Part shown: piece after piece, positions 49,816 through 58,883 of the stretch
How positions within the stretch are numbered: the first letter of the stretch is position 1
Layout of the letters: each line of letters starts with the position of its first letter
Translations under genes and position numbers: made by a program
The notes under the pieces: generated by a model
Database searches by the model: none
The model's input: only the letters and a program-made list of their open reading frames with translations
What the model was told of the DNA's origin: nothing
Assembly: GCF_020042345.1 (NCBI RefSeq)
Contig: NZ_CP083387.1
Location: forward strand, 1,364,001 to 1,428,000
DNA length: 64,000 nt
Direction: 5' to 3'
Source of the DNA: Arachidicoccus terrestris
Lineage (GTDB): Bacteria > Bacteroidota > Bacteroidia > Chitinophagales > Chitinophagaceae

Positions 49816-49899
49816 AAAAATTTCCTTGGAAAAAACTAATCTCTTGTTGTATTTTTGCGCTCGAATTTAAACAAGCCTCCTTAGCTCAGTTGGCAGAGC
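49816..49899 (+). repeat. Left copy of an 84-bp direct repeat (tRNA-Thr promoter and 5' end)
   Basis: 81 of 84 bases are the same as 51364-51447, 1,548 bp downstream. The repeat holds the promoter (TTG, spacer 21, TATTTTTG) and the first 25 nt of a tRNA-Thr gene. Mismatches are at 49824, 49833 and 49894. The flanking DNA before both copies is unrelated. Confidence 0.9.
49826..49857 (+). promoter_or_regulatory. Promoter of the disrupted tRNA-Thr copy
   Basis: TTG at 49826-49828, 21-bp spacer, TATTTTTG at 49850-49857; start of transcription expected near 49864, just before the tRNA 5' end at 49875. It is kept unchanged although the tRNA behind it is cut. Confidence 0.6.
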
Positions 49900-49908
49900 A
49901 ACTGTTTC
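49875..49908 (+). pseudogene. tRNA-Thr 5' half, cut in the anticodon loop
   Basis: 34 nt match a tRNA from the acceptor stem (GCCTCCT) through the D arm and the 5' side of the anticodon stem-loop (ACTGTTTC), then stop at the first anticodon base, where the TnpB element begins. The acceptor sequence is the same as in the intact tRNA-Thr at 51423. The 3' half is not found on the other side of the element, so the gene cannot make a tRNA. Confidence 0.8.
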
Positions 49909-49998
49909 GTGAACTACCTGACAACTATTGAGTTATCCGGCTTCGGGTTTCATCGGCTCATCTGCCTTGTGGCAGTTTTGTATGAGCCTCCGCCCGTG
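49909..49998 (-). ncRNA. Probable 3' part of the TnpB guide RNA (omega RNA)
   Basis: In IS200/IS605 elements the RNA made from the 3' end of tnpB and the right end forms the scaffold, and the first ~16-20 nt beyond the element are the guide. Here this segment contains three hairpins, and transcription would continue into the antisense of the tRNA-Thr 5' half (guide starting GAAACAGTTGCTCTGCC). It is inferred from position and folding only. Confidence 0.5.
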
Positions 49999-51108
49999 TT
50001 ATTCGGAGAGTCCCGCCCCGATTATTCTATTCCCTTCCATAAGGATATTGATAGCCGCGTTGATATCCCTGTCCAGTTTATGTCCATTCTTACAAGTCCA
50101 TTGTCTTTCAGATAGCTTCATCCCTTGGTTAATATCTCCGCAGACATGACAGGTTTTACTGGAGGGAAAGAAGCGTCCGACCCTGACAATCTGCTTATTA
50201 TTCCATTCGGCCTTCTGCTCAAGAAGCCTGAGGAGCATCCCCCAAGCAGCATCTGCAATACGCCTCGCCAGAGCATGATTTCTCAACAATCCGGCTACAA
50301 TAAGATCTTCCACACAAATCACATCATACGATTTGATTATCAACGTTGAAAGTTTGTGTGAAAAGTCCCGTCTTGAGTTCGCGATTTTTTTATGTATTGC
50401 CACTACCTTCAACCTTTGCCTTTCCCAACTCATAGAGCCGCATTGCTTTCGAGAAAGATGTCTTTGGGCATGGGCAAGTTCCCTCGCATATTTTTCTGTC
50501 GGGCTATTATTTTCAAATTTTTCACCTGTCGAAGCGATAACAAGGTTTTTTATTCCCATGTCCAGGCCAACTTTTTTACCGGTAGATTTTAAAGGTTCAT
50601 GCCCCTTTTCACAAACAATAGATACAAAAAAATCTCCCGTTGTTGTTCTTGTAACAATACAACGCTTTATTTCACCTTTAATATCGCGGTGTTTTATCAG
50701 CCTGATCCCTTCTTTGAATTTAGGGATAAACAATAGATTTCCATCTACATAAACGCGTTGGGGAACGATAAAGCTATTTTTCTTCTTTCTGGATTTATGC
50801 CGCGGTGCGCCGGCACGCCCTTCTTCATGATTCTCATCAGCGATCCTTAAAACGCGTAAGGCCGCATGGAGTGATTGACTATTGACCTCATTGAAAAAAT
50901 AAAAAGCATCTTCTTTTTTTAATAGCGTCAATTCCCGGCATTGAGCATAAAAACCGTCACAAATGTCCGTTTGAAGCCGTTGCTCTTTCATCCGGTCTAA
51001 AAACATATTATAAACAAGACGCACACAGCCCAAGTGCCTGTTCAGCAGGGCAATGTCCTGTTTTGAAGGATTCAATTTAAACTTGTATGTAATAATAATT
51101 TTTTTCAT
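49999..51108 (-). CDS. tnpB: TnpB, RNA-guided nuclease of IS200/IS605 family
   Basis: 369 residues, full length. The N-terminal HTH-type region (YKFKLNPSKQDIALLNRHLG) is typical. The RuvC catalytic acids are intact: Asp in VGLDMGIKNL, Glu in VICVEDLIV and Asp in DRDINAAINI. The zinc region has CHVCG and WTCKNGH; the second pair has His/Gly in place of the last Cys, a form I believe is common in this group. Such proteins cut DNA next to a short TAM using the guide RNA from their own 3' end. No frameshift or stop is seen, so it may be active. Confidence 0.92.
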   Translation of the reverse strand: MKKIIITYKFKLNPSKQDIALLNRHLGCVRLVYNMFLDRMKEQRLQTDICDGFYAQCRELTLLKKEDAFYFFNEVNSQSLHAALRVLRIADENHEEGRAGAPRHKSRKKKNSFIVPQRVYVDGNLLFIPKFKEGIRLIKHRDIKGEIKRCIVTRTTTGDFFVSIVCEKGHEPLKSTGKKVGLDMGIKNLVIASTGEKFENNSPTEKYARELAHAQRHLSRKQCGSMSWERQRLKVVAIHKKIANSRRDFSHKLSTLIIKSYDVICVEDLIVAGLLRNHALARRIADAAWGMLLRLLEQKAEWNNKQIVRVGRFFPSSKTCHVCGDINQGMKLSERQWTCKNGHKLDRDINAAINILMEGNRIIGAGLSE

Positions 51109-51186
51109 CTGTCCAAAAGCGTTGGCTTATAGCATTTTTTAGCCTATCATAATAAAATAGCAATACAAAACAAATATAAGTATATA

Positions 51187-51207
51187 ATTTAGTATTCAAT
51201 ACTAAAT
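51187..51207. repeat. AT-rich palindrome, candidate left-end hairpin of the element
   Basis: ATTTAGTAT-TCA-ATACTAAAT, a perfect 9-bp stem about 80 bp upstream of the tnpB start. IS200/IS605 ends carry subterminal hairpins of this kind. The exact end and the flanking TAM are not recognisable here. Confidence 0.4.
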
Positions 51208-51210
51208 AAA

Positions 51211-51363
51211 TAATCCAATCATCTATTTAACTTTTCAATAACCATCTTGGACTTGTATATGACGAAAGAAAAACTCAATAATGAAAGCCAAATTGCACAC
51301 GCGCATTGATCCTGAAAATAGCACTACCTTAGGAAGGATCTGGAGATCTATTATAGCACCATG
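51211..51363 (+). other. Spacer between TnpB element and intact tRNA-Thr copy
   Basis: No tRNA 3' half and no known domain were found. Two overlapping short plus-strand frames with ATG starts lie here (51259-51309, 16 codons; 51281-51364, 27 codons, starting MKAKLHTRIDPENS). They may be remains of an older gene or chance frames. Confidence 0.25.
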
Positions 51364-51447
51364 AAAAATTTACTTGGAAATAACTAATCTCTTGTTGTAT
51401 TTTTGCGCTCGAATTTAAACAAGCCTCCTTAGCTCAGTTGGTAGAGC
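51364..51447 (+). repeat. Right copy of the 84-bp direct repeat
   Basis: Same promoter and tRNA 5' part as 49816-49899 with three mismatches; here the tRNA continues to its natural 3' end. Confidence 0.9.
51374..51405 (+). promoter_or_regulatory. Promoter of the intact tRNA-Thr
   Basis: TTG at 51374-51376, 21-bp spacer, TATTTTTG at 51398-51405, then the tRNA 5' end 18 bp further on. Confidence 0.65.
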
Positions 51448-51495
51448 GCTTCATTCGTAATGAATAGGTCGTAGGTTCAAGTCCTATAGGAGGCT
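51423..51495 (+). tRNA. tRNA-Thr (anticodon CGT)
   Basis: 73 nt without CCA. Acceptor stem GCCTCCT/AGGAGGC, D arm GCTC-AGTTGGTA-GAGC, anticodon loop TTCGTAA (anticodon CGT, reading ACG), T arm GTAGG-TTCAAGT-CCTAT. The outermost anticodon-stem pair is C-T, a mismatch, while the inner four pairs are good. It shares promoter and 5' end with the disrupted copy 1,548 bp upstream, but its anticodon stem is different. Confidence 0.93.
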
Positions 51496-51508
51496 CTGGC
51501 TATATAAA

Positions 51509-51545
51509 AAAACTCCCGGTAAGACTTATGCTTATCGGGAGTTTT
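51509..51545 (+). terminator. Terminator after tRNA-Thr
   Basis: A 15-bp stem with one G-T pair (51509-51523 with 51531-51545) ending in TTTT, 13 bp after the tRNA. Confidence 0.8.
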
Positions 51546-51626
51546 AATGTAAGAAAATCTATCTCAGTGTGCGTTTTTTCAAGCTTTGCCGGATTGCACG
51601 CAACACTATTTATGCCTCGCATTTCT

Positions 51627-58749: not shown

Positions 58750-58760
58750 CATTTACTAAA

Positions 58761-58819
58761 AGGAAATGGTGTCTTCCTACTCAACCGCCTGTCTTTGCAC
58801 ACAGGCTGATGGCGCCTAC
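58761..58819 (+). promoter_or_regulatory. Fluoride riboswitch (crcB motif)
   Basis: The RNA has the order expected of the crcB-motif aptamer: P1 GGAA/TTCC around ATGGTGTC, the invariant AACCGCC, P2 GCCTGT/ACAGGC, then TGATGGCGCCTAC. The loop GGTGTC (58768-58773) can pair with GGCGCC (58811-58816) as the pseudoknot, with two G-U pairs. Fluoride binding stabilises this form. The gene behind is a CLC transporter of the fluoride-exporting type. In the unbound form CCTAC (58815-58819) could pair with GTAGG (58874-58878), just before the start codon, and hide the ribosome binding region. Confidence 0.9.
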
Positions 58820-58883
58820 AAATAAAAACGCATAAAGCGTACATTGGCCTGACAGGCCTCATATTTATTATTTGTAGGAAAGC

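What the first reader, a model, noticed from the sequence alone, without database searches (positions are those of the whole stretch)
49816..51495. TnpB element sits in the anticodon loop of a tRNA-Thr, with an intact tRNA-Thr behind it
Seen: the 5' half of a tRNA-Thr gene (49875-49908) stops at the first anticodon base, where a tnpB element begins; 1,548 bp downstream the same promoter and 5' half (81 of 84 bases identical) lead into an intact tRNA-Thr(CGT). Known: TnpB of IS200/IS605 elements uses a guide taken from the DNA next to the element's right end. Here that guide reads GAAACAGTTGCTCTGCC, the antisense of the tRNA. The right end finishes TTCAC; the uncut tRNA would have TTTAC at the same place, which suits a TAM like TTTAC (IS608 targets TTAC). 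Inference: the element targets tRNA-Thr anticodon loops, and the intact copy, which differs at guide positions 4, 5, 7, 8, 9 and 15, is a resistant replacement.
Basis: partly seen in the sequence, partly recalled or inferred. Interest (0 to 1): 0.82.

Follow-up and report, generated by a model that had tools for sequence, protein, structure and literature searches.

The report
TnpB element lodged in tRNA-Thr gene
A small mobile element whose RNA-guided DNA cutter takes its address from neighbouring DNA sits inside a threonine tRNA gene, next to a second, altered copy of that tRNA which the cutter's guide no longer matches; the arrangement is real and recurs in a related bacterium, but whether the cutter drove the change in the tRNA is not shown.

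Summary
A minus-strand tnpB (49999-51108) ends, after right-end motif GGTAGTTCAC, exactly in the anticodon loop of a tRNA-Thr(CGT) 5' half. Two congeners without the element (G001, G002) carry one intact tRNA-Thr(CGT) there, with TTTAC in place of TTCAC: the empty site. The guide is thus antisense to the ancestral tRNA (16 of 17 against G002). New: congener G004 carries a decayed relic at the same base, 16 of 17 guide bases as here, again followed by an intact tRNA-Thr(CGT) with another anticodon arm. Both intact copies mismatch the guide at 4-6 positions, mostly 4-9, and share a C27-U43 mispair found in 2 of 81 family genomes.

One shared insertion is likely, but the species tree is unresolved and leans weakly the other way. 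The general claim fails: relatives have unrelated flanks (0 of 20 tRNA-like), and 2 of 394 family genomes show the junction. Resistance is plausible, not proven: arm switches of this size occur in 4 of 16 other genera without the junction. No tnpA or left end was recognised; TnpB keeps the RuvC residues but has lost one zinc-finger cysteine.

The parts
49816..49874 (+). tRNA promoter region of the broken copy; repeated at 51364-51422
   Evidence: the repeat finder; BLAST
49875..49908 (+). 5' half of tRNA-Thr(CGT), cut after the first anticodon base; the complement of 49908-49892 is the 17-nt guide GAAACAGTTGCTCTGCC
   Evidence: read directly; alignment with G002; guide comparison
49909..49998 (-). 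right end / omegaRNA 3' part of the element, ending GGTAGTTCAC as in relatives
   Evidence: fold of 49909-50060 z = -3.1
49999..51108 (-). tnpB, 369 aa; D183, E267 and D348 invariant in the alignment; fourth zinc-finger Cys replaced by Gly342
51109..51363 (.). spacer where the left end and the tRNA 3' half would be expected; neither was recognised, and no ORF of 60 aa or more is listed from 51109 to 51626
51364..51422 (+). second copy of the tRNA promoter region
51423..51496 (+). intact tRNA-Thr(CGT) with altered anticodon arm (CTTCA / TGAAT, C27-U43 mispair)

Best explanation
One IS200/IS605-type tnpB element inserted, 3' of a TTTAC motif, into the antisense strand of the anticodon loop of a tRNA-Thr(CGT) gene in an ancestor of G000 and G004. 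The flank of its right end then made the guide antisense to that tRNA. The tRNA's function is supplied by a linked second copy with its own promoter, whose anticodon arm has diverged so that the guide no longer matches well. In G000 the tnpB frame and omegaRNA fold are still whole but stranded (no tnpA, no left end recognised); in G004 they have decayed. Shown: the anatomy, the empty site, the relic, the mismatches. Inferred: one shared event; that TnpB, when active, would cut the uninterrupted ancestral allele (as in G002) and spare both its own flank (behind TTCAC) and the altered copy.
For: Empty sites G002 and G001. Relic in G004 at the same base: local score 71 against a maximum of 34 in 500 shuffles of the G004 bases, with a tnpB C-terminal remnant. 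Guide 16 of 17 identical between G000 and G004 against 115 of 187 for the rest of the right end, Fisher p = 0.004. Both intact copies share C27-U43, 2 of 81 genomes. With up to 3 mismatches in 29 genomes, the four element-free congeners keep a tRNA-Thr(CGT) site with 0 (G002) or 1 mismatch (G001, G003, G005), while G000 and G004 keep only the element's own flank and tRNA-Thr(TGT) with 2. omegaRNA fold z = -3.1 in G000, +0.65 in G004. In a Sulfolobus TnpB, a target behind TTCAC was not cut (PMC11043419, passages).
Against: The tree of G000, G002 and G004 is unresolved, and its best form joins G000 with G002, not G004 (support 62), though shared sites run 120 for G000+G004, 110 for G000+G002, 107 for G002+G004. 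If G000+G002 is right, G002 must have lost the element cleanly or there were two insertions. The two G000 promoter copies are more alike (96%) than either is to G004's (76-77%), which needs recent duplication or gene conversion. The tRNA 3' half is missing from the left side. Gly342 in place of the fourth zinc ligand may have weakened TnpB. No expression or cutting data.
Confidence: 0.55

Rival explanations
1. A chance insertion into one of two tandem tRNA-Thr(CGT) copies, then plain decay. The second copy was already different or switched its arm as such tRNAs do elsewhere; TnpB never acted on it.
For: Differences at 3 or more of positions 27-31 inside a genus occur in 5 of 17 genera with at least two matching genomes, that is 4 of the 16 others. 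tRNA-Gly(CCC) of G002 has a switched arm too, 10 edits from G000. Only 81 of 394 family genomes matched the strict tRNA-Thr(CGT) pattern, so the tRNA may be dispensable. No tnpA or left end recognised; one zinc ligand lost.
Against: The two element-free congeners with this tRNA at this locus, G001 and G002, have a single copy there; in G003 and G005 it lies elsewhere (48-base-free locus L048). G004 repeats the arrangement. The guide is better kept than the rest of the right end, and a 369-codon frame stays open in G000 while G004's decayed.
Confidence: 0.3
2. Two separate insertions of related elements into the same tRNA-Thr loop in G000 and G004, that is, a hot spot in this genus.
For: Right ends only 115 of 187 identical; the best tree joins G000 with G002, support 62.
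Against: Shared C27-U43 mispair of the replacement copies; 0 of 20 relatives have a tRNA-like flank; 2 of 394 family genomes carry the junction.
Confidence: 0.15
3. A domesticated TnpB that silences or guards the tRNA locus by binding (TldR-like) or acts on incoming DNA.
For: Stand-alone tnpB with an open frame; guide kept.
Against: RuvC residues present, so not visibly nuclease-dead; within 3 mismatches G000 has no match to motif plus guide other than its own flank and tRNA-Thr(TGT).
Confidence: 0.06

Closest known systems
IS200/IS605 TnpB elements (ISDra2-type; PDB 8h1j, 8bf8)
   Same: TnpB over nearly its whole length (E 9.3e-54 to 8h1j); right end with a hairpin ending TTCAC; guide from the flank; a T-rich target motif (TTTAC here; TTTTAT, read from where the L041/L042 alignment begins, in two Prevotella-type copies).
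   Different: No tnpA or left end recognised; sits in a tRNA gene; a target-divergent copy of the interrupted gene is linked.
TnpB gene drive of insertion sequences on plasmids (PMC11870625; abstract and outline seen)
   Same: A TnpB whose guide records the insertion site would cut the element-free allele.
   Different: Chromosomal host gene, with a linked mismatched copy of the target gene; no activity shown here.
Cleave-and-rescue / toxin-antidote drives (engineered; search listing only)
   Same: Nuclease aimed at a host gene plus a linked recoded copy.
   Different: Natural, decayed in one species, tRNA possibly not essential, no drive shown.
Integrative elements that insert in tRNA genes and restore them (recalled)
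   Same: A whole tRNA remains after insertion.
   Different: They use an integrase and usually the 3' end (recalled); here the loop is split and the whole gene with promoter is repeated.

Membership tests
IS200/IS605 tnpB element | OrfB_IS605 and TNB domains with RuvC D, E, D | tested here: met
   (that these three residues are the catalytic ones is recalled)
IS200/IS605 tnpB element | conserved right end / omegaRNA next to the flank used as guide | tested here: met
IS200/IS605 tnpB element | insertion 3' of a short motif seen in the empty site | tested here: met
   G002 and G001 TTTAC
IS200/IS605 tnpB element | recognisable left end and a TnpA | tested here: not met
   no ORF of 60 aa or more from 51109 to 51626; spacer has no convincing match among loci held; a TnpA acting from elsewhere in the genome was not looked for
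TldR (nuclease-dead TnpB repressor) | loss of RuvC catalytic residues | tested here: not met
   D183, E267, D348 present
Group I intron or IStron in a tRNA anticodon loop | intron RNA on the tRNA strand with the 3' exon behind it | tested here: not met
   no intron family among Rfam matches; spacer matched no tRNA 3' half in the loci held
Cleave-and-rescue drive | nuclease guide matching the wild-type gene, linked copy mismatched | tested here: met
   by sequence only
Cleave-and-rescue drive | the nuclease cuts the wild-type allele and the copy rescues | not testable with these tools
   needs biochemistry and genetics
Cleave-and-rescue drive | target gene essential | tested here: inconclusive
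   81 of 394 genomes matched a strict tRNA-Thr(CGT) pattern; the pattern can miss real genes

The most novel reading that the evidence does not exclude
A natural cleave-and-rescue element: TnpB, guided by the tRNA-Thr(CGT) gene it interrupted, cuts the uninterrupted allele, while a linked tRNA-Thr copy with a recoded anticodon arm, still paired at positions 28-31 and mismatched within the guide's first nine bases, supplies the tRNA. After fixation the nuclease decays (G004) and the recoded tRNA stays, so a mobile element's nuclease has reshaped a conserved tRNA.
Probability: 0.15. Interest if true: 0.85.

Novelty: new variant of a known kind. Interest (0 to 1): 0.48.

Why it matters
If the guide is used, this is a natural case of an RNA-guided transposon nuclease fixed on a host tRNA gene, with the host's escape recorded in compensated base-pair changes of the anticodon stem. 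It gives a simple test of what TnpB does to its host after insertion: the matching allele, two mismatched alleles and a decayed stage all exist in congeneric species. If the guide is not used, it remains an example of an insertion that split a tRNA and was outlived by a second copy.

Tried and rejected
Tried and rejected. (1) Element family specific for tRNA genes: 0 of 20 relatives with a readable right end have a tRNA-like flank (45 bases, two motifs; the same test flags G000 and G004): L008, L041, L042, L044 and 16 viral-contig homologues. In one search I examined 28 of the 80 loci returned; 12 of the 28 had no GTTCAC within 300 bases and were left out; L167 and L168 share one flank. L165, a pattern hit, has no TnpB match and was not counted. 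(2) Broken tRNA-Thr in other genera: one search matched 5 of 394 genomes; three are not tRNAs; the reversed control also matched in three genomes. The pattern fixes the right end as GTGRAC, so other ends would be missed. (3) Junction pattern in viral contigs: 13 hits, none with a TnpB match in the stretch. (4) Close homologues of this TnpB: only G000 at E <= 1e-100 in 147 relatives and at E <= 1e-90 in 395 phylum genomes; nearest named ones are Prevotellaceae, 51-52%, viral contigs reach 53%, and all 599 plasmid records are under 60%. (5) Group I intron: no Rfam match. (6) Left end: not found; a palindrome near 51187-51207 is a weak candidate. (7) Altered arms as a mark of element carriers: in the genus 2 of 2 carriers against 0 of 4 others, but arm switching elsewhere and in tRNA-Gly(CCC) of G002 makes this weak. 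(8) dN/dS of tnpB, a structure model and a TnpA search of the genome were not done. Errors of mine: one search read the wrong side for loci on the minus strand (redone); the stem-pair list and the pos39 count used wrong columns (redone; the genus, guide-mismatch and Fisher figures do not depend on them). Papers: (TnpB + anticodon loop) found 0; (TnpB + tRNA-Thr) 1, on Haloquadratum, where the passages seen put the tRNA-Thr in a prophage-like region; one search found 24 and listed 15, one search found 45 and listed 12, one search listed 15 and one search listed 5, judged by titles and abstract starts only.

Full report
What is there. The window lies in G000, a single 4.9-Mb contig. On the minus strand, 49999-51108 encodes a 369-aa TnpB with OrfB_IS605, Cas12f1-like_TNB and HTH_OrfB_IS605 domains, matching solved TnpB over residues 10-368 (8h1j, E 9.3e-54). 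D183, E267 and D348 are invariant among the four TnpBs aligned; the fourth cysteine of the zinc finger is Gly342 with one residue missing nearby, unlike the other three. That these are the catalytic positions and zinc ligands is recalled.

The junction. Downstream of tnpB the right end finishes GGTAGTTCAC, as in the G000 remnant L008, the Prevotella-type copies L041 and L042 and, with small changes, L044. The next base on that strand pairs with tRNA position 34, and the guide GAAACAGTTGCTCTGCC is the complement of 49908-49892. The stretch 49909-50060 folds better than shuffles (z = -3.1, 2 of 200 shuffles as good).

The empty site. parE was sought in 39 genomes and found in 33; 30 loci were fetched, G000's and 29 others. 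In two, G001 and G002, an intact tRNA-Thr(CGT) lies within 1.5 kb on the parE start side (three of the 30 loci are cut short there by contig ends or nearly so, and the intact copies of G000 and G004 lie further out). It is the only tRNA in the longer stretches taken, and sits between parE and the homologue of the 51627-52181 gene. Its antisense reads TTTAC followed by GAAACAGTTGCTCTACC in G002. The parE-side flank and promoter of the broken G000 copy align with G002. So the broken copy is the ancestral gene, split between positions 34 and 35. In G003 and G005 the tRNA lies elsewhere.

A second carrier. G004 (parE 97% identical in protein) has GGTAGAGCAACTGTTTCGTG at the same place, followed by right-end and tnpB C-terminal remnant, 115 of 187 aligned bases identical to G000. 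The remnant has a one-base gap and the aspartate of RDxN reads valine (from the alignments); its fold is no better than shuffles (z = +0.65). The promoter and the rest of the half tRNA are gone, yet the guide-sized stretch is kept: 16 of 17 the same as G000 (Fisher p = 0.004 against the rest). About 2.1 kb on stands an intact tRNA-Thr(CGT) with its own promoter-like region.

The intact copies. Against the ancestral guide kept in G004, mismatches are at 4, 5, 7, 8, 9 (G000 copy) and 4, 6, 7, 8 (G004 copy); the G000 guide adds 15. The two copies differ from each other at 16, 26, 29, 30, 31, 39, 40 and 41 only. tRNA-Thr(CGT) is the most divergent of 21 comparisons between G000 and G004 (7 edits, next 3); these come from 28 and 22 tRNAs in the stretches I took, not from all tRNAs of either genome. 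Pairs 28-31 are kept, and both copies have a C27-U43 mispair found in 2 of 81 family genomes with a matching tRNA. This points to a common origin of the altered copy.

Against escape by selection, and against one event. Of 17 genera with at least two matching genomes, 5 show three or more changes in positions 27-31, this genus included; the other four have no tRNA junction. tRNA-Gly(CCC) of G002 has a switched arm too. The tRNA may be dispensable (81 of 394 genomes matched a strict pattern). The tree of the three species is unresolved; its best form joins G000 with G002 (support 62), while shared sites favour G000+G004 by 120 to 110 and 107.

Targets. Searching TTAC plus guide with up to 3 mismatches in 29 genomes (the pattern allows either base at guide position 15): G002 has a perfect site, G001, G003 and G005 one mismatch, all at their tRNA-Thr(CGT). 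G000 has only its own flank (TCAC) and tRNA-Thr(TGT), mismatched at 1 and 4, and at 15 for the true G000 guide; G004 has only its relic and tRNA-Thr(TGT). In a Sulfolobus TnpB, TTCAC abolished cutting, the -5 base of the motif was free and robust editing was seen with single mismatches behind a strong motif (PMC11043419, passages). By that yardstick the altered copies would be spared through the guide mismatches, not the motif, and tRNA-Thr(TGT) is the nearest gene at risk. This is inference across distant TnpBs.

Generality. The element family is not tied to tRNAs (0 of 20 flanks), and the junction occurs as a tRNA in 2 of 394 family genomes.

Verdict. A real insertion of a known kind with an uncommon aftermath seen in two species.

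Noticed in passing
58753-58825: Fluoride riboswitch (RF01734) on the plus strand, 54.7 bits.
   Followed up: no
L002, L003, L004, L005, L006: Five further tnpB copies in G000, 40-41% identical to this one, alike in their ends by eye and with different outer flanks (L006 with one stop), so another TnpB element seems to have multiplied in this genome.
   Followed up: partly
L161 (G002) against L129 (G000) and L143 (G004): tRNA-Gly(CCC) of G002 has a replaced anticodon arm, 8-10 edits, though most other tRNAs compared are identical between these species.
   Followed up: no
L045:560-2470: Between the G004 relic and its intact tRNA lies about 1.9 kb that, its last promoter-like part apart, matched none of the loci held; it has two minus-strand ORFs of 80 aa or more, one helix-turn-helix-like by eye.
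   Followed up: no
49816-49910: The tRNA promoter region left in front of the broken half points into the element and, if active, would give RNA antisense to the omegaRNA and tnpB.
   Followed up: no
L033, L046 (G002): parE and prs of G002 appear split by frameshifts, perhaps assembly errors.
   Followed up: no
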